Positions 1 to 62,599 of a stretch of 64,000 bases of DNA are shown here, in pieces. Origin of the DNA: Diabrotica undecimpunctata. Lineage: Eukaryota > Arthropoda > Insecta > Coleoptera > Chrysomelidae. The DNA lies in assembly GCF_040954645.1 (NCBI RefSeq), contig NC_092807.1:27883853-27947852 (forward strand). Direction: 5' to 3'. Both the position numbers and the translations under genes were made by a program. Positions within the stretch are counted from its first letter, which is position 1. The number at the start of each line of letters is the position of its first letter. The notes under the pieces were generated by a model. That model ran no database searches. It saw only the letters and a list, made by a program, of their open reading frames with translations, and had not been told where the DNA came from.

Positions 1-726
1 ATGGTGAATGAATTGAGTCTCGCTCGTCATGTACCAGATAGTATACTTTTGGAATCAGGTATAGATTTATTTTCGGATAAAGCCTATCAGTTTTATAAAG
101 ATGTTCGTCTACGTGTAGGGAGTTGGGCTGAATTAGTTGAAGAGTTTCGTAGGGAGTACCTGTCAGCTCACCATGGGGAAGCGCTTTTTGAAGAGCTTCG
201 GAGGAGAACTCAGCATTCGTCTGAGACTATTGGAGTTTACTTGGCAATAATGAATAGTTACTTTAATCGCTTGCGTTGTCATGTTCCAGAGGAAGTTAAA
301 TTGTCTATAGTTATTAGGAATTTGCATCCGTTCTATCAAGATAGATTACGTGATCCTTTGCCAGCTACCTTGGAGGAACTTCGTGTTCTATGTCGCAGTA
401 TGGAGGAAAGACGTGATTGTATTAGGAACTATGTTGAACCGAATAGTAGGAAAATGAATACTTTGGAAAAGGACCTAGCTTATATCAGTGTGGATGCTGA
501 AAGTTGTAGTAGTGTTAGTGAGGGTCCTGTTGTTTCATCCGAATCGGAGTCCGCTAGAGGAAAGTTTAGGACTTTAATCTGTTATCGTTGTAATCAGTCA
601 GGCCATAAGGCAGTAGGGTGTCTAATGAAGAAGGAGGCTGTTCACTGTTTTAAGTGTAAGAAAGAAGGGTTTACAGTCAGAACTTGTCCTTCGTGTAATT
701 CGGGAAACGGAAGGAAGCGCACCTAA
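1..726 (+). CDS. gag: Gag polyprotein with two zinc knuckles (partial)
   Basis: Nucleocapsid and capsid protein of the gypsy element, which packages the element RNA in the cytoplasm. The C-terminal part has two CCHC-type knuckles: CYRCNQSGHKAVGC (residues 193-206, CX2CX4HX4C) and CFKCKKEGFTVRTC (residues 216-229). The second has a phenylalanine where the histidine would be, so it may not bind zinc normally. The N-terminal half resembles a retrotransposon capsid domain (helix-rich, no cysteines before about residue 94). The frame is already open at base 1, so the true start is probably upstream. It ends with TAA at 724-726, overlapping the pol frame, which opens at 699. Gag-Pol is likely made by a -1 frameshift at 702-708. 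Confidence 0.8.
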   Translation: MVNELSLARHVPDSILLESGIDLFSDKAYQFYKDVRLRVGSWAELVEEFRREYLSAHHGEALFEELRRRTQHSSETIGVYLAIMNSYFNRLRCHVPEEVKLSIVIRNLHPFYQDRLRDPLPATLEELRVLCRSMEERRDCIRNYVEPNSRKMNTLEKDLAYISVDAESCSSVSEGPVVSSESESARGKFRTLICYRCNQSGHKAVGCLMKKEAVHCFKCKKEGFTVRTCPSCNSGNGRKRT

Positions 727-771
727 CTGGTCGAAGAGGTGTTGCCGACGTTGACTCGACCAACCTACGTC
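702..771 (+). promoter_or_regulatory. Probable gag-pol -1 frameshift signal with pseudoknot
   Basis: GGGAAAC at 702-708 is in the gag frame as G GGA AAC, a canonical X XXY YYZ slippery heptamer. It lies inside the gag/pol overlap (pol frame open from 699, gag stop at 724-726), and pol is in the -1 frame. Downstream, TGGTCGA (728-734) can pair with TCGACCA (756-762). In its loop, GACGT (747-751) can pair with ACGTC (767-771), forming an H-type pseudoknot. The spacer from the slippery site is about 19 nt, longer than usual. A nearer alternative stem is CACCT (720-724) with AGGTG (737-741). Confidence 0.6.
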
Positions 772-821
772 CTATTTTAGACTTTATTTTACATCATTCC
801 GAAGGAGATGAACGTCCATAT

Positions 822-3800
822 TTGAAAGTTAAAGTCTTAGGAAAGGAAATTTTGGGATTATTGGATTCTGGTGCTTCAAAGACCATTGTAGGAAGAACTG
901 GTTGGAAATTTTTACAAAACTTGGGTTTAGAGTTGGATACTTCGAAGAAGACCGTTTGTAGAGTGGCGAATGGTCAGATGTGTGAATCGTTGGGGGAATG
1001 TTTAGTACCTTTCATGGTTAGGGATCGCTTGCGTGTCTTGCCAGTATTAGTTATTTTGGACGTACCGCACATTCTGATTTTAGGATCTGATTTTTGGCGT
1101 GTTATGGGTATCGTTCCAGATTTGAGGCATAACGAATGGTATTTTTCGGACGCTCCAGCAATGGTAGGTTCAGTGGATCATCTCCGAGGTCAAACTATTT
1201 TGACCGATGCAGAGAAGTCGCAATTGGAGGAAGTTATTAATAGAAGTCGTGAACTAATGGGCACTTCTCTTGGTTGTACTGATGTCACTGAGCATGTGAT
1301 TGTTTGTAAATCTGCACCCATAAAACAACGTTACTATCCTGTATCCCCAGTAATCCAAAGCCATATTGATAAAGAGCTAGAAGATATGTTGGCGAAAGGA
1401 GTAGTGGAGCGATCGAATAGTGCTTGGTCGTCCCCGATTCTCTTGGTGAAGAAAAAAGTTCCAGAAGGTGAAGAACCAAAATGGAGGTTCTGCGTAGACT
1501 ATCGAAAGCTTAATGCCGTAACAGAGAGGGATGGCTACCCATTACCGTACATCTCTAATATTTTAAATAAATTAAAGAACGCGCATTATCTTTCCACCAT
1601 AGACATTAAGTCGGCGTATTGGCAGGTACCTGTTGCTAAGGCTTCCAGGCCTTATACTGCTTTTACGGTTCCTGGTCGAGGTCTTTTTCAGTTTTGCAGA
1701 ATGCCTTTTGGATTACATAATGCCCCGGCTACATGGCAAAGGTTGATAGATCGTGTCCTCGGTCCGGAGTTGGAACCCTATGTTTTTACTTACTTGGATG
1801 ACGTGGTCATCGTGACAAAGTCTATTGAAGAACATGTAAGGATCTTAGAGGAAGTCTTTAGACGCTTGAGAGAAGCTAAGTTAACCGTTAGCTGGGATAA
1901 ATGTCAATTTTGTAGACCGGAACTAAAGTATTTGGGTCATGTGGTTGATAGGAATGGACTACATGTTGATGGTGATAAGGTCAAGGCTATGCTACGTATC
2001 CCAACACCCACATCCGTCAAGGAAGTTCGTAGCATCATAGGCACATTTTCCTGGTATCGAAGATTTATTCCTTCCTTTGCGACACTACTAGCTCCAATTA
2101 CAGCGATATTGAAGAAAGGAAGAAAATTCAATTGGACCCCGAGTTGTGAAGAATCTTTTCAGAAAATAAAAGAATGTCTAGTTTCTGCTCCGATACTTAA
2201 TTGTCCTGACTACAATTTGCCTTTTGTTGTCCAATGTGATGCCTCAGGATATGGAGTGGGCGCCGTGTTATTGCAGCCAGGCCCGGATGGTGACGAAGTA
2301 ATTAGTTTCCTGAGCAGATCACTAACGCGTCAAGAAAGGAATTTTTCCACGACGGAACGGGAATGTTTAGCTGTGTTATGGGCAGTCGAAAAACTGCGTC
2401 CTTATTTGGAGGGTGTTCCTTTTACGGTCGTGACTGATCACGCATCCCTCGTATGGCTTCAAAATTTGAAGGATCCTACTGGAAGATTAGCTCGATGGGC
2501 GGTAAGATTGCAACAATATGACTTTAAGATTGTGCATCGGAAAGGAAAAGAACATGTTGTCCCCGATTTGTTATCTCGGTCAGTTCCCGTGCTTGATATG
2601 GTTGAAGAGGTTGTACCGCTTCCTAGTGGTGATAGTTGGTATGATAAACTTTGTAGAAAAATCGAGTCTAATCCCTTGAAGTATCCTCAGTGGAGAATGT
2701 CTGGTGGCAAACTTTATAAATACATCCGTCCCAGTCATGGATTTTTGGTCGAGGAAGCGGACAATTGGAAGGAAGTCGTTCCTAAGGGTCAACGATTGGA
2801 AGTGCTGAAGTTGTGTCATGATAGTCCTTTAGCAGGTCATATGGGGATCCTGAAAACTTATAAGCGTATTAACGAGAAGTATTTTTGGCCGAAACTGCGG
2901 AGTGATGTGTCTCGTTACGTTGGACGTTGCTCACTGTGTGCCATGCATAAGGTGGAACAAGGTAAGCCCAAAGGCTTTATGACTCCTCAACCTAAAGCTA
3001 CTCAACCATGGGAGATAGTAGCAACCGATCTTATGGGACCTTTCCCAAGATCAACTCAAGGCTATAAGTTTATCTTAGTGGTAATGGATGTGTTTAGTAA
3101 ATTTTCTTTGGTATTTCCGTTGCGATCCTCAAAAGCCGTGCATGTCGTTAAGAAAATAGAAGAAGAAGTTTTTCTCGTATTTGGAGTTCCACGTCTGTTA
3201 CTATGTGATAATGGTGTCCAGTATACTTCGGGTATTTTCAAGAAAATGATGGAAACCTATGGTGTCTCAGTTCGTTATAATGCGTTGTATCATCCACAGT
3301 GCAATCCATCTGAACGCTATAACCGAACCCTTAAAACAATGATGGCAACTTATATAGCTGACAACCATAGGAAGTGGGATGAAAATTTGGCCAAACTAGC
3401 ATGTGCTACGCGCACTGCATACCACGAGTCGACTGGTCAAGATCCCTACTTCATAAATTTCGGTCGGAAGATGGTAGTGGATGGACGAGATTTTTCCCGA
3501 AAGGACAAACTCGGAGACCCGGAGGACGAAGTAGCTAAAATGGGATATAATCGATCGCGTGGACTCCAGGAATTATTTGTTGATGTTAGAAAACGTTTAG
3601 ATAAAGCTTCGGCTAAGTGTGAGAAGACCTATAATCTACGGAGACGTCCAGAGGAATTTCAGCCCCATCAGTCAGTATGGCGGAGAAATTTTGTGTTGTC
3701 AGATGCCGCTAAATATTTCACGAAAAAGTTAGCTCCTAGATGGATAGGACCCTACTTCGTGAAGAAGAAAGTTTCCCCCTGGACATATAGTTTAGAGGAT

Positions 3801-9224: not shown

Positions 9225-10960
9225 TTATTCAGTCATTTTATCAATGCATATGAGACAAACAGGTATGGTATGTTTCAAGCAAATAAATTTTTTACAATAA
9301 TGACACATGTATCGAATTTTACGATCTCTACAAAAAGCACAACGCCCCCTTTTATTTTGCAATTCCGCAGGTGCTTGTACTGGTTCAGCACCATTGAGTT
9401 TAGCAACAAGCTCTCTTATATCTCGTACCAAATGAGGAGATTGAGCTTTCTTTTATATTGTCCATTACTAACTGAAGGCCTAGTTCTTAAAAAAAATCTT
9501 CTTTTGCTTGTTTTTAGATCCAGTTTGTTAGTTCTCTTTATCACAAATGTATTTATTGCAGCAACATCAATCAATCCATAAAAGATGACCATGGGCCAAC
9601 GTTTTGTATTTCTTGCGACAGTATAGGAACCTCGAAGTTAATGAACCGTGTCCATACCACCTTTCGTAGAGTTATAGAACGTTATTACTTCAGGTTTACT
9701 TTGGTCACCCGTTGTCGGATCGATTTGGTCATCATGGTGTAGGGTTGACAAAAGAACAACATGTTTTGTTGATTATTATTTAAATGGGAATAAGCCACAA
9801 TTAAAGGTTAAAATATGTTTTGTTGGTTTTGTTATATAGGACAATATCGTCATATCTTTGGTAAATCCAAACATAGTTGATTTTGGCGGTCTAAAAAAAT
9901 TCGGTTGGGATATATCTTTTGTTTTTCTGTAGGGTGCCTACAATTAATTGTTAGACTATGATTTGTCAGTAAGTTTAGTGCGACTTCAATTGATGTAAAC
10001 CAATTGTCCATTGTGACATTCCGGTTGGATTTCGAGATTGGTTTGCAAAGCCCCTCAACCACATCGTACGCTGCAGAACTGAGAGGATATGATTCTGGTG
10101 GTTGTGTACCGGCATAGATTTCTAATTGATAAGTATAGAAAGTGTGAGAATCCACCAAAGAATATACCTTCAGACCGTATCGGTCCGGTTTGTTTGGAAG
10201 CTATATTCTGAAACTACAGCGACATCTAAAGCCTAAAAGCATCTCATCGATAGTGAGATATTGGCCAATAGTATAATATTCTTGAAAATTTTCAACTACA
10301 TCCTCGGATACGACTCTAACTGCTGCAAGTTTGTCTACTTGTTTCCATTCGTCCCTTGCACGAATATCATCTAGGCGTAAGCACTTCATAAGAAATCTAA
10401 ATCTGCGGAGAGCCATCGTTGCCAGAAATATGTCAATGCCCGTACCATTTTTTCCCAAAACTCAAAAATTGAAGTTCTACCTCCACGGTAAATTCCAGTT
10501 AAGTAAATCAGGCCAATCAGAGCTTTTAGTTCACATATATTTGTTAGCCTCGCATCGGAACTGTCTTTATATCTCACGTACACACGCTCAATATATACAT
10601 TAGTACATTCAACAATATGTTTTATAATTTTGCCATTTAAAAACAGTTTCCAGCATTCCTTTTCAATTGTGCAACTTTTTGGATTGCGAATAACTCAAGG
10701 AAGTTTTGTGATGATATTTTCTCGTCTAGTTCTAACATTCTGTGTTGCGCGTGTATTATTTCATTTCATTCCATCTTTGGTATTGTAATAAAGGTGTTGG
10801 TTTGACACACCTTGTGGAATTCATTCTTGTAAGTTTAGTTTGGTGTCTGATAAATCAAATTCAGACTCTGAATTATGATTACCATCTTCGTTTTCTAATT
10901 TTGCAACAATAGTCTCATCGGAATCTGAATCTTCATAATTGTCTTCCTCGTCGGTTGCAG
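9225..10960 (-). pseudogene. piggyBac transposase (copy 1), main part
   Basis: DDD transposase that cuts and pastes at TTAA. The N-terminus (acidic, DEEDNYEDSDSDET, about 10900-10950) starts beyond the Penelope insertion: the ATG is at 12826-12828 (MYSYEGEVK), and the frame resumes at 10992 (KRLQCLYKE). The first aspartate is in TIDEMLLGF (10201-10458), the second in TMDNWF (9850-10158) and the third in KGGMDTV (about 9630-9700). The C-terminal cysteine finger CAFCRDRKIRYMCHYCKKF is in 9225-9431. All three catalytic aspartates survive, but frameshifts, a 43-bp insertion at 9772-9814 and the Penelope element at 10993 break the gene. Confidence 0.8.
9772..9814 (-). mobile_element. 43-bp Penelope tail micro-insertion
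   Basis: The sequence matches the 3' tail of the Penelope-like element at 10993 (GGGAATAAGCCACAATTAAA shared). It is flanked by the 11-bp direct repeat ATGTTTTGTTG at 9761-9771 and 9815-9825. Without it the piggyBac frame reads on into KPTKHVVLLSTLH, as the family requires, so it is a genuine insertion rather than part of piggyBac. Confidence 0.75.
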
Positions 10961-11563: not shown

Positions 11564-11893
11564 TTACTGACTTACCAATACTGGTATTTTCTTTTTAATA
11601 ACTTCCTCTTTCAATATGGGTAACCAGATCCTACTACATTCTGCCGAGGAATTCGCGACACAATTGGTCTCATTTAGCATAATTAGAGCCGCTTCTTTGA
11701 TTTTTCTCTTTTTACCATCCGTTTCTTTTAGGACTATATTTGAATCATTCCATTGAACCCTATGTTCATTATCCCATGCATGTTTACATATTTGAGATCT
11801 ATCAAATTCTCTATTTTTAATATAGGATTGATGTTCACTTATTCTAACATTTAATGGCCTTGATGTTTCACCTAAATAAAACATCAAGGCCAT
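11564..11893 (-). pseudogene. GIY-YIG endonuclease domain of Penelope-like element (left arm)
   Basis: C-terminal endonuclease of a Penelope-type RT, which nicks DNA to prime reverse transcription. YLGETSRPLNVRISEH gives the GIY-YIG-like start with the conserved arginine and histidine. KIKEAALIMLN carries the expected glutamate, and the tail ends WLPILKEEV. The RT and linker upstream are missing, since the copy stops at the palindrome centre. The first few codons (MALMF) come from the opposite arm. The downstream 103 residues are identical to the right-arm copy. Confidence 0.75.
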
Positions 11894-12183
11894 TAAATGT
11901 TAGAATAAGTGAACATCAATCCTATATTAAAAATAGAGAATTTGATAGATCTCAAATATGTAAACATGCATGGGATAATGAACATAGGGTTCAATGGAAT
12001 GATTCAAATATAGTCCTAAAAGAAACGGATGGTAAAAAGAGAAAAATCAAAGAAGCGGCTCTAATTATGCTAAATGAGACCAATTGTGTCGCGAATTCCT
12101 CGGCAGAATGTAGTAGGATCTGGTTACCCATATTGAAAGAGGAAGTTATTAAAAAGAAAATACCAGTATTGGTAAGTCAGTAA
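11854..12183 (+). pseudogene. GIY-YIG endonuclease domain of Penelope-like element (right arm)
   Basis: Mirror copy of the left-arm frame, read outwards from the palindrome centre. It is shorter at its start: the YLGET motif is replaced by HLNKT because the junction spacer belongs to the left copy. From TSRPLNVRISEH onward it is identical, including the KEAALIMLN segment, and stops at TAA 12181-12183. Not expected to be active alone. Confidence 0.75.
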
Positions 12184-33761: not shown

Positions 33762-36468
33762 GTTCACAAATTGTTGAGAGCACGAAATATGCCTCAAACT
33801 CATAAAACGGTCGTAAATCATAGGCGTTCCTAAGGTGTTTATTCATTAAATAATAATATAATGTTTTAATACTGTTATATATAATATTGATAATATTTTA
33901 ATACTAATATATTTAGCAAAAAAACAATTAAAACCTTCACGACTAATGTTGGTTATTATATTATATTAATAAAAATAAGAATTTAACCTTTAACAATTTT
34001 GTAAATAAGAATACCTTATCTCTTTGGATATTTCAATACTAATCTTCGCGTTTAATCACTTTACTAGAAAACCTGGAATTCATATCCGAATGTACTATTC
34101 GTTGCAAGATAATTAAGATGGAATTCCCCAGATTTTTAATAATATAATTATATTCGAAACTTAACTTGAAAGGGTGAAGTTATTACGAAAGAAAACAATT
34201 TTTTTGTTTAGTACGTTTTTGATCGCATGTAATTTACGGCTCGTCGGTGTTTCCGCGTCTACGGCAGTAATTAGCGTCTCGAATATTTCTTTTGCGAATT
34301 ATCAGTGCGTGAGTGATTTTTTATTCCATATACCTACGAACATATACGTACCTTTCGCTCGTGCTCGTTTTGTTGGATTGTGATGGCTTCATCATCAAGT
34401 TTTACACCGGTACTGTTGCGTACAGTCAGTAAGTCTGTCTATTCACCAAGAGAGAAGACTATTGTCCTGAATGTTCACGATGCTCTGGTTTCTCAGAATC
34501 CCACAAACACTGTTCGCAACATAGTCGAAAGTTGTGCCAACATGACTGGCGTAGGAGAGTCAACTTTATATAGGTAAAATTCATGGATTTTTTTTCAAAA
34601 AAGAAATACCAAACCTAAACAAAATTTTACAAGAAGTTAGAGACGACCCGGATTTGCCTCATATCGGACGAACTAAATTGTGGCAAGTTTTAAAAGAATT
34701 ATATTTCCGGTGGGAGAAATCAGACCGAAAATCACTTTTGATTTACCGGGAGGAGAAGATGATGTTGGAGAAGAAATTATCTAAGATTCATACGAAAATT
34801 CCGGGCTGAAGAAAGGCCCATCTTCTACCAGGATGAAACGTGGGTAAACTCAGGTCATACTCTAAAAAAAATTTGGTCAGATAAAAATATATTAAGCTCC
34901 AGGCAAGCCTTTATGGAAGGTTGGTCTACTGGTATCTCCCCACCTTCTGGTAAAGGCAGTAGATTAATAATTTCTCACATTGGCAGTGAAAAAGGATTTG
35001 TTAAGGATGGTTTGTTGGAATTTCATTCCAAAAGCACAAAAGACTATCACGAGGTGATGACAGCTGATGTTTTCGAAGAGTATTTTGAGCAAATGATTGA
35101 ACACATACCACCAAATTCAATTATAGTATTAGATAATGCACCTTATCATTCACGACTAGTAGAAAGACTTCTAACGAATGCGTGGAAGAAACAGGATATT
35201 CTTGACTGGCTGCGGAATAAGTATCTGCCTTACGAAGATGGAATGGTAAAAGCAGAACTTTTAAAAATTGCCCGGCAACACAAATCTAAGTTCAAGAAAT
35301 ACGTAGTTGACAAAATGGCGGAAAGGCGAAACATCACAGTCTTTAGACTTCCACCCTACCACTGCGAAATAAATCCAATTGAACTCATTTGGGCACAAAT
35401 GAAAAGTTATGTGGCTACAAAAAATACGTCATATAAAATACAAGCTGTACGTAATTGTTATACGAGTCTTTATAACGTATTACAAAACAAAACTGGAAAG
35501 ATGCAGTAAGACATGTAATAGAAGAAGAACAAAAAATGTGGGATCTTGATAACATAATTGATGCGACCGTAGAGATTATTAACCTAATTATTAACCCTCA
35601 AGACGACTCGGATTCCGAAGTTGATCCTATTTATTTTGAATTTGAATAGTTTTCTAATCGTAATTATATAAGGTAAGTAATAGTAGTTGTAATCGTAAGG
35701 TATTAAAGGGGAAAGGCGCAAAATGTCGCCTGTCAAAATCTTCAATGTGTTTTAAATGTATCCATTTTTTTTTCAAATCCTGAGAAAACTAAAAAGCATT
35801 TTTGAAAAAATTAAAGGTAGAATGAAATATTTTTTAGAATAAATAAAAAGTTTCTTTTGCATGCAATATTTTCAATTAAAAATTATACTATATTTTCTCT
35901 TTTATTTTCACCCCTGTTACATAACATATTAAAATAACATTGTAGAAGTTTTCAGGGACTTTCTGCCCTGAGTAATAATGTAATCTTTCATTCTGCGTTT
36001 AAATTTTTCAAAAATATTTTTAGTTTTCTCCGAATTCGAAAATAATGGATACATTTAAAACACATTGGAAATTTTGCCAGGCGACATTTGACGCCTTTTT
36101 CCTTAATTAAATAAATGTATCTTTTACAAATGGCAAGAAACTTTTTATTTTTAAATAAAATAAATAAGTTTTATTAAAAAATACAATTTACATAAGTACA
36201 ATTTAAAAAATATATTTATTTAGTTCAAATAAATGTTTTAATCATATACTCTACGACACTGGTCGTTCATTTCTAACCATTCAAAATACCCCTATAATAG
36301 GATTATAAGGTATTGTATTCCTTCAGATACAAGGTGGGTTAGTCGAAAACGTCTTAAACCGTCAGTTTTAGGTTGGTTTTTACTATTATATCGTATTACC
36401 TATCCTCTCTGTATTTCAGTTTTCTAATTAGGGTTAAACTTGTAGTGAGCTATCAACAAATTGTGAAC
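33762..36468 (+). mobile_element. IS630/Tc1-like DDE element, copy A (D-E spacing 82)
   Basis: Ends GTTCACAAATTGTTGAGAGC (33762) and, inverted, GTTCACAATTTGTTGATAGC (ending at 36468). Contains one transposase gene. Copy B at 51994-54902 is the same family in the opposite orientation, including the noncoding flanks (for example the GGCGACATTTTGCGCC-like stretch near 35720 and its inverted partner near 36090, which give internal inverted repeats). Confidence 0.75.
34380..35649 (+). pseudogene. IS630/Tc1-like transposase, copy A
   Basis: Starts MMASSSSFTPVLLRTVSKSV. A stretch of about 120 bp present in copy B is missing after STLYR (34575). PDLPHIGRTKLWQVLKEL and RFIRKFRAEERP are followed by FYQDETWVNSGHTLKK with the first catalytic aspartate. 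IIVLDNAPYHS has the second and CEINPIELIW the glutamate, with exactly 82 residues between them. The last 45 codons are shifted to another frame at about 35490 and end ...DDSDSEVDPIYFEFE at 35649. Catalytic residues are intact, but the gene is broken. Confidence 0.8.
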
Positions 36469-52816: not shown

Positions 52817-54203
52817 CTATTCAAATTCAAAATAAATAGGATCAACTTCGGAATCCGAGTCATCTTGAGGGTTAATAATTAGCGGTTGTGTCTCTACGGT
52901 CGCATCAATTATGTTATCAAGATCCCATATTTTTTGTTCTTCTTCTATTACATGCCTTACTGCATCTTTCCAGTTTTTGTTCTGTAATATGTTGTAAAGA
53001 CTCGTATAACAATTCATGTACAGCTTGTATTTTACATAACGTAATTTTTCTAGCCACATAACTTTTCATTTGTGCCCAAATGAGTTCAATTGGATTTATT
53101 TCGCAGTGGTAGGGTGGAAGTCTATGGACTGTAATGTTTCGCCTTTCCGCCATTTTGTCAAATACGTATTCCTTGAACTTAGATTTGTGTTGCCGGGCAA
53201 TTTTTAGAAGTTCTGCTTTTACCATTCCATCTTCGTAAGGCAGATACTTATTCCGCAGCCAGTCAAGAATATCCTGTTTCTTCCACGCAGTCGTTGGAAG
53301 TCTTTCTACTAGTCGTGAATGATAAGGTGCATTATCTAATACTATAATTGAATTTGGTGGTATGTGTTCAATCATCTGCTCAAAATACTCTTCGAAAACA
53401 TCAGCTGTCATCTCCTCGTGATAGTCTTTTGTGCTTTTGGACTGAAATTCCAACAAACCATGCTTAACAAATCCTTTTTCACTGCCAATGTGAGAAATTA
53501 TTAATCTACTGCCTTTACCAGAAGGTGGGGAGATACCAGTAGACCAACCTTCCATAAAGGCTTGCCTGGAGCTTAATATATTTTTATCTGACCAAATTTT
53601 TTTAGAGTATGACCTGAGTTTACCCACGTTTCATCCTGGTAGAAGATGGGCCTTCCTTCAGCCCGGAATTTTCGTATGGATCTTAGATAATTTCTTCTCC
53701 AACATATTATCTCCTCCCGGTCAATCAAAAGTGATTTTCGGTCTGATTTCTCCCACCGGAAATTTAATTCTTTTAAAACTTGCCACAATTTAGTTCGTCC
53801 GATATGAGGCAAATCCGGGTCGTCTCTAACTTCTTGTGAAATTTTGTTTAGGTTTGGTATTTCTTTTTTGAAAAAAAATCCATGAATTTTCCTTCGAATA
53901 CCATTTTTGCCAAATTCATCAATTTCAATAGGCATTTTCCCTCTCTTTAAGTATTCGTTTGTGTTTGGGTTAGCTATACCGTGTTTTTCTTTCTGATAGG
54001 AACCTATATATAGTTGACTCTCCTACGCCAGTCATGTTGGCACAACTTTCGACTATGTTGCGAACAGTGTTTGTGGGATTCTAAGAAACCAGAGCATCGT
54101 GAACATTCAGGACAATAGTCTTCTCTCTTGGTGAATAGACAGACTTACTGACTGTACGCAACAGTACCGGTGTAAAACTTGATGATGTTGATGATGAAGC
54201 CAT
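52817..54203 (-). pseudogene. IS630/Tc1-like transposase, copy B
   Basis: Starts MASSSTSSSFTPVLLRTVSK at 54203. MPIEIDEFGKNGIRRKIHGF and PDLPHIGRTKLWQVLKELNF (53573-53935) follow, then FYQDETWVNSGHTLKK with the first aspartate, where an A-run frameshift occurs. FMEGWSTGISPPSGKGSRLI, IIVLDNAPYHS (second aspartate) and CEINPIELIWAQMKSYVARK (glutamate) are in 52917-53627, with 82 residues between aspartate and glutamate. The C-terminus DDSDSEVDPIYFEFE is in a third frame (52817-53059). At least three frameshifts or stops; all catalytic residues are kept. Confidence 0.8.
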
Positions 54204-56241: not shown

Positions 56242-57581
56242 TTACAAAAGGTTCAAATAAAAATATAAAAAAGCAAGACATTGGGTATCCAAGCCTAAAA
56301 AAAGTGAGGAGTCCCGGAACTGGATACATTCGTCGCAAATGCGATGAAGGTGATCTAAACAATAAAAATTTTGGCATTGATCGCACGTTTGTTTAGTTTT
56401 ACGGTCAGATTTTCTGGAACACTTTTGACACCGTCCACCTCCCGTACGTTGCTTTTTCGGTGGAGCTTGGTCACTTTCTTGAACTATTTTGGATCGTAAA
56501 TGTTTTGTAAGTCGCGGATTACTTTTTCGTTCTTCCATAATTGGCGTAACTAATGTTAGTTCTAGAAATATACGACGTTTCTTTGAATAGTCACTAGTGT
56601 TTGTTTTGTAAATTACCTGGCTGTTCATTCCAGCTGTGTCCATTAGTGAAAAAAATATTCTTAGTGGCCACCTTCTATAATTACGAGATATCCTGTAACT
56701 TCCTATCAACTCATCCACCGTATCAACCTCCTTTTGTAAAGTTACATATAGAAACTTATTATTTCGGGTAAAAGTTTCTCGCCGGTACATTTATCTATTT
56801 CATCATCGTGATGAAGGGATGATAATAAAATTACGTTTTTTTGGTACAAAGGATACCATAGTTATATGTTCCTAAAATCCAAATACCGAGGCCTGTGGTT
56901 GTCTGTTGTTATTCTGTATAAATTCTGGGGGAATATCTCGCTTGTTTTTCCTCAGAGTTTGTACTGAGGTTAAACTATGTCGTTTAGGCAAAATTTTCAC
57001 AAGTTCGTAAGAGTTATACCAATTATCGACAGTGATATTTCGATTTTTACTAGAAATTGGTGCTATCAGTCTTTGGACAATATCAATAGGTTTATTGCTT
57101 ATTTTGTACGGCCCATCTGGCTGCGTCCCTGCATAAATTTTCATAAATTAAAAACATAAAAGTACGAGAGTCTACTAGGGCCTGTATTTTTATTCCGTAT
57201 TTGGCGGGCTTTTTCGGAATATACTGCTGAAATGAGCAACGCCCACGAAAAGACTCTAACTTCTCGCCAATAGCCAAGTACTGTGGTACTTGAGGTACTT
57301 GAGTACTGTGGTACAACCTGGTGAGTAAGCTTGTTGACAATTTGCGACAAATTTTTTTAAAAACTGCCCTAATAGAAGCCAACTTATCAGATTGTTGCCT
57401 TTCTTATCGATTATCGAAACGTAAGCTCTGCAATAAAAATGTAAATCTATTGTGCCATCACTGGACGAAATACACCGATTCCTTTATCATTTGTTCGCCA
57501 AAGGTCTTTTAGATTACGATGACCATTTCTATATATACCCGATAGTAGAGGAGGCCAAATAATGCCTTTATTTCAGGTCCC
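56242..57581 (-). pseudogene. piggyBac transposase (copy 4), catalytic and C-terminal part
   Basis: Continues from the TTAA at 57582 with GPEIKALFGLLYYRVYIEMV, then DKLASIRAVFKKICRKLST and YLAIGEKLESFRGRCSF, where the first aspartate of the family's IDE is glycine. QPDGPYKISNKPIDIVQRLI and NRNITVDNWYNSYELVKIL carry the second aspartate. EVDTVDELIGSYRISRNYRR carries the third. The C-terminal finger is CQKCSRKSDRKTKQTCDQC and CLDHLHRICDEC. Frames change at about 57140, 56870 and 56790. Inactive. Confidence 0.8.
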
Positions 57582-57585
57582 TTAA

Positions 57586-58290
57586 GCTAGCGGGGACACA
57601 TGAGCGGAATCCAATTTAACCTACGTAATATTTTTTCACCAATTTTTCACTAATTTATTACCACCCTAATAATTTTTCACCACCAAACCAACCTTAAGGG
57701 GAGCGATTCTGCTGGCTTAAGGTTCAAGCTAGCAGAATTAAAAAAAAAAACTTTTTGTTGATGGCATATTTTTTCACCAATTTTTCACTAATTTATTACC
57801 ACTTTAATAATTTTTCACCACCAAACCACCCTTAATGGGAGCGATTCTGCTGGCTTAAGGTTTAAGCTAGCAGAATTCAAAAAAAAAACTTTTTGTTGAT
57901 GCCATATTTTTTCACCCATTTTTCACTAATTTATTACCACCCTAATATTTTTTCACCACCAAACGACCCTTAATGGGAACGATTCTGCTGGCTTAAGGTT
58001 CAAGCTAGCAGAATTCAGAAAAAAAATTTTTGTTGATGGCATATTTTTTCACTAATTTTTCACTAATTTATTACCACCCTAATTATTTTTCACCACCAAA
58101 CCACCCTTAATGGGAGTGATTCTGCTGGCTTAAGGTTTAAGCTAGCAGAATTAAAAAAAAAAAACTTTTTGTTAATGGCATATTTTTTCACCCATTTTTC
58201 ACTAATTTATTACCACTTTAATATTTTTTCACCATCAAACCACCCTTAAGGGGAGCGATTCTGCTGGCTTACGGTTCAAGCTAGCAGAAT
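57586..58290 (+). repeat. Left array of 138-bp units
   Basis: The anchor ATTCTGCTGGCTTA occurs at 57706, 57844, 57982, 58119 and 58258 (spacings 138, 138, 137, 139; the last with ATTCTGCTGGCTTAC). Each unit has an A run, TTTTTCACC-type stretches, and a hairpin in which ATTCTGCTGGCTT pairs with AAGCTAGCAGAAT with one mismatch around a short loop. The hairpin arm contains TTAA and resembles the element's own end (TTAAGCTAGC). Confidence 0.9.
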
Positions 58291-58433
58291 AAAAAAAAAA
58301 TATTCATGCTATACCACAGTCTTCTGCTAGGTTTTTACAAATTTATTACAACTTTAGTAATTTTTCACCCCTTACTTTCCCTTTAACAAAAATTAAATAA
58401 ATTTGTTTTTTCAAAAATACATTTACACGGTGT

Positions 58434-58630
58434 GTGTGTGCGAGTGTGTGTGTGAAAAACACTTCGGTTGTAATAATTGGTATATTTAATTAAAAATTAC
58501 TACTTACCTATTACTTACTAAAAGTACTACAAATTTCACTGAAGATGGACTGATAAATCCGAAAACGTTTTGAACTTAATCCCTTACGATTTTTAAAATT
58601 TAATTAAATATACCAATCACAACAGTGTTT
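58434..58630. repeat. Small inverted-repeat segment
   Basis: TTGGTATATTTAATTAAAAA (58487) and its near-complement ending AAATATACCAATCACAACA (58606-58624) enclose about 90 bp with CTGAAGATGGACTGATAAAT. A GTGTGTGTGTG stretch precedes it. Possibly a small hairpin MITE inside the larger element; class unknown. Confidence 0.45.
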
Positions 58631-58779
58631 TACTTCAATGTTCGAGTTTTTTAACTATATGATATACAGCCAACTCACGGGAATGATCCCTTTTTAAGTT
58701 GTAGAATTTTGTTAAAAAATAGGCAATGTACAAAACAACAATATTGCAATGTTTAGCATATAAAAAAGTTGGTGAAGTT

Positions 58780-59434
58780 GGTGTTTGTGTAAATTCTAGC
58801 ATTTAAAGATGTAAACTACTTTCCTTATTTGAATTTCTAGTATTTATGGGAATTATCTTCCACACTGACACATACGGATTTCAAGATTTAAGGGTTATTG
58901 GAAAACAGATCCACTATTCAACTTAAAATCTTTTTTGCAGAACATCGGAAGAAATCTTTTTCTTATAATTTTAAGGTGCTTAATCTTCATCCATAATCCA
59001 ATGGGACCGAATGTTATTCCTGAAGATCGGTTTTATAGAATAAGAACAGTTATAGACTTTTTAATAATAAAATGACTGCTCTGCGTTATCCAGTAAAAGA
59101 ATTATCGCTAGATAAATCGATGGTACCGTGGAAAGTTAGACTTAGTTTTAAACAATATACTAAACAAAAGACATAAAAAAAGATATCAAGATTAGAATTA
59201 ATTCGTAAATTAATTTATAAAAAAGCAAAGAAAGACGGAATATCGCACGCGAACATTTACCTATAAATAATTGCTAATAAATCGGACAAACGCGAAACGA
59301 AAACGAAAAGATGCAGAGTATGTCCTATCCTAAAAATAAGAAAAAACCCAATTTATGAATGTGTGGATTGTGCCGAGAAACCAGATCTCTCCCTGGGAGA
59401 TTCTTTCAAACATTTCCATAAACAAAATAAATAA
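58780..59434 (+). pseudogene. piggyBac transposase remnant inside the TTAA element (copy 5)
   Basis: IIFHTDTYGFQDL, then in the next frame YWKTDPLFNLKSFLQNIGRN, PEDRFYRIRTVIDFLIIK, then ALRYPVKELSLDKSMVPWKV and RLSFKQYTKQK with the first catalytic aspartate (SLDKSM, SIDEAM in relatives). The region with the second and third aspartates is deleted. It resumes at GISHANIYL and the cysteine-rich end CRVCPILKIRKKPIYECVDC, stopping at 59432-59434. At least two stops. Resembles PGBD4-type piggyBac more than copies 1-4 do. Confidence 0.7.
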
Positions 59435-60179
59435 GTTAATATTTTTTTGTAATAACCTTTAATTTCTACCTATATTCAACTGACAATGAATGAACAATCG
59501 ACAAAGAATTAAAATATAAATATCTTTAAATTTTTAAAATGCTGCTAATATAAATTTATTTTACTACGCAAATAATCTATATCAGCTGTTCTGACCAACC
59601 GGTAATTTCGGTCTAATTTGAATATCCCTACTTAAAATATTTATAATATCCTAAAGTGTTTTCCAATATAAATTCTTTATGTTATACACCTAATCTTAAA
59701 ATTATGTTTTGACCAATCGTTGATACTCTTCTTATTTAAATAACATTAAAATATTAAATAACTAAATTATTTTTCAAATTTTCATCTACCTAATGAATAC
59801 AAATATTTTAACAATAGGAGCGCACGGTCCCGACCCTCCTTTACAATCAGTTAAATAATGTAATAGACGTAATAAAATTATTTCAATTTGAATATTTCTT
59901 ACCTGGTAATTTATTCTGTGAAATATAAAAATTCCATTGTATTTACTAAAACTCAACTTGATTTCAGTTATTTTATATTCATAAAAGGGACTAACGATTC
60001 GATTTCGCTTAGCCATGTAATACGACTCGAATCAATTTTTTAAAACAGGTAAAATTTATAGTTTTTGGAATAAAGTGTTTTCATATTTTTAATATTTAAA
60101 CATTGAAAAAATAAATATTAGTTAGTATAAAATAACATTTGAAAATGTTTTTCAATAAGGTTAGTTGAGAAAAACATGA
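59435..60179. other. No gene seen (inside the TTAA element)
   Basis: AT-rich spacer between the transposase remnant and the right repeat arm. Confidence 0.4.
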
Positions 60180-61430
60180 CTAGGCTGGTAAAAATATAGT
60201 AAAATTCTAGCAGAGCACTCTTGTGTTTTCAAAAAGATTTTTTATTCACCTAGCGTCAATGTGTATCTTGTTGAATGTTTCCCATTAACTGAGGCTTAGG
60301 GGTCAAAAATTATAAGGGTGGATTAAATTTAGTAAAAACCAGGCAAGCAATTTATATTTTCAGTTACAAGTAGAATACAGTAAAATTATAAAAATAGATT
60401 TTTTATCACCTTAAATTTTAACGTAGTAGAATTATTGACTCCTCATAGAGGGTAGTTGAAGGGTGAAAAATTACTAGGATGGTAATGTATTAGTACAAAT
60501 CTAGCATAATACTGTAGTATCTCATATTTCCGAAAAGATTTGCTTTGCATTCAACCAGCGTAAATGTGTAGATGGTGGAATTGGTGAAGTTGGTTAACAT
60601 TTAGTAAAAATTAACCAGAGAGTTTCTTATTTTATTTATAAATAGTATTTAGTAAAATTATAAAACAAAACTTTTTCATCTTTAATTTAAACGTAGCAGA
60701 ACTATTGACTTCCACTAAGGGTTAGTCGAGGGATAAAAAATTACTAAGTTGGTAATAAATTCGTAAAAACTTAGCAAAACACTGTGGTATATCATAAATA
60801 ATTTTTTTTTAATTACGCTGGCTCGAACATTAAGCTAGGAGGAACGTTTCCAAATAAGATTGGTTTAGAGATGGAAACTTATCAGGGTAAAAATACTTTT
60901 TTATGTCAGTTATAAGTAGAGGATAGTGAAATTGTAAAAAAAGATTTTTTCACGTTAAATTTTAACCTAACAGAATTATTGACTTATCACAAGGGGTAGT
61001 TTAGGCAAAGAATATAGACGCTAAGCGTCTATATTCTTTGGTTTAGGTGTGAAAAATTACTAGGGTGGTAATAAATTAGTAAAAACTTAGCAGAATACTA
61101 AGGTATTTCAAAAATACGTTTTTTTCTTATTTTGCTGGTTCAAATATTCAGCTAGTAGGAAAGTTTTCGAATAGGTTTATGGGAGAAAAATGATCAGGAT
61201 GGTCAATGTTTAGTATAAACTTAACAAAACACTTTTTTATTTCAGTTATAAGTAGTGGACAGTAAATTAAAAAAAAATTCTCCTTAAATTTTAATCTTAG
61301 ACAATTATTGACTTTTCACAAGGGGTAGTTAAGGGGTGAAAAACTACTAGGATGGTAATAAATTCGTAAAAACCTAGCAAAACACTGTGGTATATTATAA
61401 ATATGTTTTTTTAATTCTGCTAACTTGAAC
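60180..61430. repeat. Degenerate inner repeats of the right arm
   Basis: The phrase family GACTNNNCANNNGGGTAGTT...AAAAATTACTAGG recurs at about 60438, 60708, 60981 and 61311, that is, every ~270-290 bp (about two 138-bp units). Sequence is well diverged from the outer units. A 35-nt palindromic insertion sits at 61006-61040. Confidence 0.65.
61006..61040. repeat. Perfect 35-nt palindrome flanked by short direct repeats
   Basis: CAAAGAATATAGACGCT (61006-61022), a single A, then its exact complement (61024-61040). TTTAGG precedes it and GTTTAGG follows, while the neighbouring units have only one such motif. It therefore looks like a tiny insertion with a 6-bp target duplication. Confidence 0.6.
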
Positions 61431-62119
61431 CGCAAGCCAGCAGAATGACTCCCCTTAAGGGTGGTTTAATGGTGAAACAATATTAGGGTGGTAATAAATT
61501 AGTAAAAATTGGGTGAAAAAATATGTCATCAACAAAAAGTTTTTTTTTGAATTCTGCTAGCTTGAACCTTAAGCCAGCAGAATCGCTCCCATTAAGGGGG
61601 TTTGGTGATGAAAAATTATTAGGGTGGTAATAAATTAGTGAAAAATTGGTAAAAAAATATGCCATCAACAAAAGGTTTTTTTTTTGAATTCTGCTAGCTT
61701 GAACCTTAAGCCAGCAGAATCGCTCCCCTTAAGGTTGGTTTGGTGGTGAAAAATTATTAGGGTGGTAATAAATTAGTGAAAAATTGGTGAAAAAATATGC
61801 CATTAACAAAAAGATTTTTTATTTTATTATTCTGCTAGCTTGAACCTTAAGCCAGCAGAATCGCTCCCATTAAGGGTGGTTTGGTGGTGAAAAATTATTA
61901 AGGTGGTAATAAATTAGTGAAAAATGGGTGAAAAAATATGCCATCAACAAAAAGTTTCTTTTTTGAATTCTGCTAGCTTGAATCTTAAGCCAGCAGAATC
62001 GCTCCCCTTAAGGTTGGTTTGGTGGTGAAAAATTATTAGGGTGGTAATAAATTAGTGAAAAATGGGTGAAAAAGTATTACGTAGGTTAAATTAGATTCCG
62101 CTCATGTGTCCCCGCTAGC
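61431..62119 (-). repeat. Right array of 138-bp units
   Basis: The inverted anchor GCCAGCAGAAT occurs with CAGAAT at 61441, 61578, 61715, 61856 and 61994 (spacings 137, 137, 141, 138), then the terminal unit to 62119. Units match the left array in reverse orientation with high similarity, including the same hairpin. Confidence 0.9.
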
Positions 62120-62123
62120 TTAA

Positions 62124-62599
62124 GGGTCCTCTTTACTTCAACAATATTAGTACTGCTACAATATGCTTTATCTTTGTAGGTTAATGCTTTTTTATCTATC
62201 AATACATTGGTGCAGACCGTGATACCTTCAAGCATTTCTTCATAAAAAAAGAAGCCAGCAATCTAAAAAGTCTTAACATCTTTAGCATATGGATTGTATC
62301 CTGGTAAATTCGAAATTATGTTCTCTGCCCTCTTTTTAACTGCTTTATTACCATAGTGTTTTCTCCATTTTGTTTTGGAATCCCTACCTAAATAATAAGA
62401 ATATTTTTTATCTTCTTTTCGCTTATTTTCAGATTTCAATACTTCTAGTTCCCCAATTTCTTTATTTTGTTCACCTATCAGACTGATTACTTATGTGATC
62501 AATTTCGTTTTCATCGTCGGAGTTCATAATTTCGTACTCATCATCTTTGAGTTCCTGCCAAAGTGCCAATAGTTGAGCTTGTTCTTTTTCGTAATTCAT
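62124..62599 (-). pseudogene. piggyBac transposase (copy 4), N-terminal part
   Basis: Starts MNYEKEQAQLLALWQELKDD at 62599, with an acidic stretch (SDDENEID). After a stop and frameshift it continues SYYLGRDSKTKWRKHYGNKA, then ENIISNLPGYNPYAKDVKTF, a stop, and MLEGITVCTNVLIDKK with SSTNIVEVKRT at the TTAA. This is the usual N-terminal piggyBac domain, and it reads in frame into 57581 once the TTAA element and one TTAA copy are removed. Two stops. Confidence 0.75.

What the first reader, a model, noticed from the sequence alone, without database searches (positions are those of the whole stretch)
57582..62123. piggyBac-like TTAA element with Foldback-style ends of tandem 138-bp units
Seen: TTAA on both sides, a TIR of GCTAGCGGGGACACATGAGC and beyond, five 138-bp units on each side in opposite orientation, and a decayed piggyBac transposase between them. 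Known: piggyBac duplicates TTAA and normally has TIRs of about 13-20 bp; Foldback-like elements have long ends with tandem subrepeats. Inference: a piggyBac lineage has grown its terminal repeats by amplifying a unit that contains a copy of its own end (a hairpin with TTAA and GCTAGC), which may multiply transposase binding sites. I know of no named family of this kind.
Basis: partly seen in the sequence, partly recalled or inferred. Interest (0 to 1): 0.85.

Follow-up and report, generated by a model that had tools for sequence, protein, structure and literature searches.

The report
Foldback transposon carrying dead piggyBac fragment
This is one copy of a jumping DNA element, present hundreds of times in its genome, with long tandemly repeated ends; it duplicates nine bases where it lands, so it is not the piggyBac-type element it seemed to be, although it carries a broken piece of a piggyBac gene.

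Summary
The reported anatomy is real, but the piggyBac reading fails. The window lies in a 1.74-Gb genome with 736 matches to the terminal sequence. Both ends were examined in 28 elements. A perfect 9-bp target duplication flanks 26; the window copy has 8 of 9; one is half of a tandem dimer flanked 9 of 9 as a unit. Here the element interrupts another piggyBac gene; removing it with one 9-bp copy aligns gap-free to a relative, whereas the TTAA model needs a nine-residue insertion. The inner piggyBac fragment is real, but its stop codons are shared by 14 of 14 full-length fragments, so it was dead before the family spread. A true piggyBac nested in one copy shows TTAA and CCC ends. Best reading: a non-autonomous Foldback element, probably of the MULE/Rehavkus kind, like Tetris and Rehavkus-1_TC. 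Its transposase was not found. New member of a known kind.

The parts
57566..57574 (.). left copy of the 9-bp target-site duplication, CTTTATTTC
57575..62130 (+). complete non-autonomous Foldback-type element (4556 bp)
   Evidence: ends set by comparison of 18 complete copies; inverted arms
57575..57627 (+). left terminal domain beginning AGGTCCCTTAAGCTAGCGGGGACACATGAGC; the TTAA is internal
57628..58302 (+). left tandem array: five 138-bp units (starting 57628, 57766, 57904, 58041, 58180)
   Evidence: TRF; profile
58807..59431 (+). captured dead piggyBac transposase remnant: matches model positions 54-150 in two frames, then jumps to the C-terminal zinc finger; stops at 59174 and 59264 lie between pieces of one frame, stops at 58866 and 59036 bound the pieces; all four are stops in 14 of 14 full-length fragments compared
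60230..61384 (-). about six diverged inner units of the right arm
   Evidence: profile scores 24-39 against 108-156 for the outer units
61404..62077 (-). right tandem array: five strong 138-bp units in inverted orientation (3 to 11 in the other 17 complete copies)
   Evidence: TRF; profile
62078..62130 (-). right terminal domain, ending GCTAGCTTAAGGGTCCT
62131..62139 (.). right copy of the 9-bp target-site duplication, CTTTACTTC (8 of 9 identical)
56242..57574 (-). target: downstream part of a separate, decayed piggyBac transposase gene interrupted by the element; its upstream part continues from 62140 (aligned part to about 62250)
   Evidence: DDE_Tnp_1_7 on 57092-57403 (E 1e-9) and weakly on 56242-56790 (E 9e-4, below cut-off); empty-site alignment

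Best explanation
57575-62130 is a non-autonomous cut-and-paste DNA transposon of the Foldback type. Its long inverted ends consist of a roughly 53-bp terminal domain followed by a tandem array of 138-bp units. SHOWN: it duplicates 9 bp on insertion; it exists in hundreds of copies with shared ends; the number of units in the right arm varies between copies; its interior holds a piggyBac transposase fragment that was dead before the copies spread. INFERRED: it is moved in trans by a transposase of the MULE/Rehavkus group that recognises the AGGTCCCTTAAGC termini; the arrays grew by local duplication of a unit that contains an end-like motif (CCTTAAGCYAGC) and may add binding sites; the piggyBac piece was picked up by capture, or by nested insertion followed by decay, as foreign internal sequences are in Pack-MULEs.
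For: 9-bp duplication: mean identity 0.95 at length 9 against 0.29 at 8, 0.31 at 10 and 0.30 between mismatched copies, 16 of 18 complete elements were perfect, the window had 8 of 9 and L013's first copy 2 of 9, 10 of 10 further elements were perfect (picked by hand from usual-sized pairs, not by arm similarity). L013 is half of a dimer flanked 9 of 9 as a unit. Empty site: the interrupted piggyBac gene aligns gap-free under the 9-bp model (score 119) and needs a nine-residue insertion under TTAA (score 100). The outer AGGWCCC belongs to the element: the left end has T and the right end A in 17 of 18 complete elements, L015 having A at both, and one T with one A in 35 of 37 pairs, A at both in 2. 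Copy number: 736 ends, control 0. Dead remnant: same stops in 14 of 14. Right arm 3 to 11 strong units in 18 complete elements. Similar architecture in Tetris (PMC4079207, passages) and Rehavkus-1_TC (PMC10218199, passages); Rehavkus listed with 9-bp duplications (PMC6446971, passages).
Against: No transposase of its own was found. Six long intervals or pieces looked into hold nested elements: L015 and L058 Tc1-like, L030 and L033 non-LTR, L031 piggyBac, L032 Gypsy-like (Pfam for L030, L031 and L058, the rest by eye; L032 is 10 of 12.3 kb and L058 4 of 8.9 kb). The 41 MULE-domain loci on C1 and C2, of 150 scored, lie at least 101 kb from a listed end. Two large MULE families of the genome have unrelated ends. 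The MULE/Rehavkus assignment therefore rests on duplication length and architecture alone; sequence similarity to Rehavkus-1_TC or TCsat23 could not be tested. PMC6446971 lists Rehavkus ends of 26-400 bp, shorter than the roughly 730-bp arms here.
Confidence: 0.8

Rival explanations
1. A piggyBac lineage that amplified its own terminal repeats: TTAA is the target duplication and the inner gene is its transposase.
For: TTAA adjoins GCTAGC at both ends and a piggyBac remnant lies, at least in part, inside 20 of 22 copies read. PMC12732532 notes that a small number of beetle piggyBacs lack TTAA duplications or deviate from them (passages).
Against: 9-bp duplication outside AGGWCCC in 26 of 28 elements, 8 of 9 in the window, and the last a dimer flanked 9 of 9. 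Empty-site test favours 9 bp. Stops shared by all 14 full-length remnants compared. A true piggyBac in the same genome has TTAA plus CCCATTAGCGCC ends; beetle piggyBacs have short ends starting mostly CCC (PMC12732532, passages).
Confidence: 0.03
2. A Foldback element of another superfamily with 8-9 bp duplications, such as Merlin, or of an undescribed superfamily.
For: No MULE gene was linked to these ends. Foldback structures arise in several superfamilies (stated in PMC4079207, passages).
Against: Merlin elements are recalled to be small with short ends. The best architectural match seen is Rehavkus-1_TC (PMC10218199, passages). Not tested: the search for PF12762, meant as a Merlin-type probe (recalled), got no answer.
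Confidence: 0.15
3. A satellite array or segmental inverted duplication with no transposition.
For: Tandem 138-bp units.
Against: Hundreds of dispersed matches to the same end and 9-bp duplications at the copies examined.
Confidence: 0.01

Closest known systems
Rehavkus-1_TC (Tribolium castaneum), carrying satellite TCsat23
   Same: Inverted termini with tandem satellite monomers, 'mostly five and eight' (PMC10218199, passages); here five on the left, and four to eight on the right in 16 of 18. Rehavkus is listed with 9-bp duplications and a minisatellite before the 3' end (PMC6446971, passages).
   Different: 164-bp against 138-bp monomer; 9.5 kb against about 4.5 kb. No Rehavkus transposase in any copy read here; a dead piggyBac fragment instead. 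Sequence similarity not testable here.
Tetris (Drosophila virilis)
   Same: Foldback element with a terminal domain, a tandem outer domain (TIR-220) of variable copy number, an inner domain, a variable middle without apparent coding capacity and 8-10 bp duplications; no autonomous copy found; the tandem unit shares 37 bp with the terminal domain (PMC4079207, passages).
   Different: 220-bp unit. Only three structurally complete copies reported. No piggyBac fragment mentioned in the passages read.
Aedes aegypti MULEs (Muta1-14)
   Same: Long inverted ends with subterminal tandem repeats in 10 of 12 long-ended families, 8-9 bp duplications, non-autonomous copies with heterogeneous internal sequences (PMC5225508, passages).
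   Different: Subterminal repeats are 9-15 bp, not 138 bp.
Beetle piggyBac elements
   Same: The captured fragment belongs to this transposase family.
   Different: Intact ones are 2.1-3.5 kb, with short ends starting mostly CCC and, as a rule, TTAA duplications (PMC12732532, passages).

Membership tests
piggyBac | TTAA target-site duplication | tested here: not met
   TTAA is inside the terminus; the duplication is 9 bp
piggyBac | short terminal repeat starting CCC next to TTAA | tested here: not met
   termini AGGTCCC and AGGACCC; a true piggyBac nested in L031 has CCCATTAGCGCC
piggyBac | own functional piggyBac transposase | tested here: not met
   remnant lacking the middle of the gene; stops shared in 14 of 14 full-length fragments
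Foldback-type elements (structural class) | long inverted ends built of tandem subrepeats | tested here: met
Foldback-type elements (structural class) | array length varying between copies | tested here: met
   right arm 3 to 11 strong units in 18 complete elements; left arm 5 in all 22 rows, a sample retrieved with a five-unit query
MULE superfamily | 8-11 bp target-site duplication | tested here: met
   9 bp
MULE superfamily | MULE-type transposase in an element with the same termini | tested here: inconclusive
   none found; 150 of 1659 candidates scored, and only 100 of 736 ends listed
Rehavkus | 9-bp duplication and tandem repeats near the ends | tested here: met
Rehavkus | terminal repeats of 26-400 bp (table in PMC6446971) | tested here: inconclusive
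   arms with their arrays run about 730 bp, but the arrays reported for Rehavkus-1_TC, five and eight monomers of 164 bp, would exceed 400 bp too
Rehavkus | PHD-finger transposase | tested here: inconclusive
   no transposase of its own found in the copies read; no Rehavkus query sequence was at hand
Rehavkus | sequence similarity to Rehavkus-1_TC or TCsat23 | not testable with these tools

The most novel reading that the evidence does not exclude
The array units, each holding an inverted copy of the end motif, act as spare ends for a transposase not yet linked to this family, so that the element can also move or multiply as tandem dimers. The L013 pair (two copies differing by 1 substitution in 4914 aligned bases, joined by a 10-bp filler and flanked by one 9-bp duplication) would be a product.
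Probability: 0.12. Interest if true: 0.55.

Novelty: new member of a known kind. Interest (0 to 1): 0.3.

Why it matters
It corrects a tempting misclassification: a TTAA at both ends plus a piggyBac gene inside looks like a new piggyBac architecture, yet the duplication shows a Foldback element that carries a piggyBac corpse. As a transposon with satellite-like tandem ends in hundreds of copies, with position-specific units and variable arrays, it is good material for studying how such ends grow and how transposons may seed satellites.

Tried and rejected
piggyBac reading: rejected. TTAA-based empty site: it also keeps an open frame and first looked convincing, but it fits the relative worse. 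Autonomous copy: six long intervals or pieces (L015, L030-L033, L058) show nested insertions and no transposase of the element's own; most intervals of the genome were not read. Two large MULE families as source: unrelated ends and no match to the element in L054-L057. Rfam: no match at gathering over the window; two sub-threshold snoRNA-like matches in the element (E 0.33 and 0.99) taken as chance. Homogenisation between the two arms of one element: outer 190 bp differ by 3.2% within (18) and 3.1% between elements (306 pairs), so none seen. Viral-contig collection: no exact match to a 26-base terminus. Papers: piggyBac with TTAA, tandem repeats, terminal inverted repeats and foldback gave 1 paper, a general plant review, seen as listing only; a looser search gave 3, of which one (PMC5225508) was read in passages.
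Full report
What is there. The arms are inverted copies (outer 324 bp 94% complementary), each with about five 138-bp units. A profile of the unit finds five in the left arm, five strong ones in the right and about six diverged ones further in. The inner gene is a real piggyBac remnant: two adjoining pieces match DDE_Tnp_1_7 (positions 54-114 and 112-150 of 349; the first just below Pfam's cut-off, the second above it), and a later piece matches the zinc finger zf-Tnp_2 (below its cut-off). Two further pieces match nothing, so the middle of the gene appears to be missing.

Copies. The window lies in a 1.74-Gb genome. The 32-base terminus with up to two mismatches occurs 370 + 366 times, the reversed control never. 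Only 100 of the 736 places are listed. Among them 37 adjacent pairs could be formed and 26 ends were left unpaired; the median length is 4916 bp, and 30 of 37 pairs lie between 3.8 and 5.5 kb.

True ends and target duplication. Twenty 10-kb stretches around the best arm hits were fetched. With the window they gave 22 rows, of which 18 were complete elements. L011 (partly masked), L019, L028 and the second copy in L013 were left out because the other end was not found inside the stretch. All 18 have AGGTCCC or AGGACCC outside the TTAA. In 17 of 18 the left end has T and the right end A; L015 has A at both. These bases therefore belong to the element. Directly outside, 16 of 18 have a perfect 9-bp duplication, the window copy has 8 of 9, and L013's first copy has 2 of 9. 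Mean identity is 0.95 at 9 bp, 0.29 at 8, 0.31 at 10 and 0.30 between mismatched copies. Ten further elements, picked by hand from usual-sized pairs, gave 10 of 10. The L013 exception is the first half of a dimer: two copies with 1 substitution in 4914 aligned bases, joined by GAGACGAGAC, flanked as one unit by AAACATTTA on both sides.

Empty site. The element sits in another, decayed piggyBac gene on the minus strand. Removing it with one 9-bp copy gives a frame that aligns without gap to a second piggyBac of the window (10386-10694, score 119). Removing it with one TTAA leaves nine extra residues (score 100).

The inner piggyBac gene did not move the family. Of 22 rows, 14 (window and L011 included) carry the fragment over essentially its whole length, 6 carry part of it and 2 (L021, L028) none. 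The 14 full-length ones have stops at all four positions examined: two between pieces of one frame, two that bound the pieces where the frame shifts. Their mean pairwise identity is 98.0%. A search with the fragment scored 40 of 287 candidates, at 97-100% identity; the 12 that lie where one search lists ends are all within 4 kb of one (my comparison of the two lists). No intact parent was seen among those 40. One copy (L031) holds a nested true piggyBac (DDE_Tnp_1_7 at E 1e-33 and 2e-23), with TTAA on both sides and CCCATTAGCGCC ends, inside a TTAA of a unit: a good contrast.

The arrays. Units at the same left position in different elements are about 97-98% alike, those at different left positions 91-97%. 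The left array was therefore inherited whole from a master copy, while the right array ranges from 3 to 11 strong units. The left count of five is biased by the five-unit query. The unit holds an inverted 11-of-12 match to the terminus (1 of 500 shuffles as good). That this adds transposase sites is inference; PMC4079207 proposes the same for Tetris, citing Galileo (passages).

Class. Nine-base duplications, long ends and foreign inserts fit the MULE group (PMC6446971 and PMC5225508, passages). Tandem satellite units in inverted ends, mostly five and eight, are reported for Rehavkus-1_TC (PMC10218199, passages). No transposase of its own was found: the six long intervals or pieces looked into show nested elements, and the 41 MULE loci on C1 and C2 (of 150 scored) lie at least 101 kb from listed ends. 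The assignment to MULE/Rehavkus is therefore probable, not shown. No call named the host; a beetle is a guess from the literature parallels.

Noticed in passing
L013 and L029 (G000:C2:99665885-99675727): Two element copies in tandem, 1 substitution in 4914 aligned bases, joined by GAGACGAGAC and flanked as one unit by a single 9-bp duplication; a recent dimer or an assembly error.
   Followed up: partly
G000:C3:52192783, 52197434, 52202402: Ends in the order +, +, - suggest a second tandem pair.
   Followed up: no
L031 about 548-3084: Nested true piggyBac with TTAA duplication and CCCATTAGCGCC ends inside a tandem unit.
   Followed up: partly
L019 (G000:C11:10984530-10994529): Polinton-like genes (by eye) apparently nested within a copy of the element.
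   Followed up: no
L054-L057: Two MULE transposase families with many intact frames of 473 and 480 aa; the ends of the copies read are unrelated to this element.
   Followed up: partly
window 61006-61040: A perfect inverted repeat (CAAAGAATATAGACGCT / AGCGTCTATATTCTTTG) interrupts a diverged inner unit and looks like a tiny insert.
   Followed up: no
window 58469-58624: Hairpin arms (84% complementary) around a stretch resembling a hammerhead ribozyme core (recalled motif); no Rfam ribozyme match.
   Followed up: partly
window 11564-12183: Two nearly identical 111-aa frames in opposite orientation, partly overlapping; possibly from a Penelope-like element (by eye); the one tested has no Pfam match.
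   Followed up: partly
window 34763-35509 and 52917-54022; L058; L015: A transposase with a DDE_3 domain (Tc1/mariner-like; for window 34763-35509 and L058, the others by eye) occurs twice in the window and is nested, itself or a relative, in two copies of the element.
   Followed up: partly
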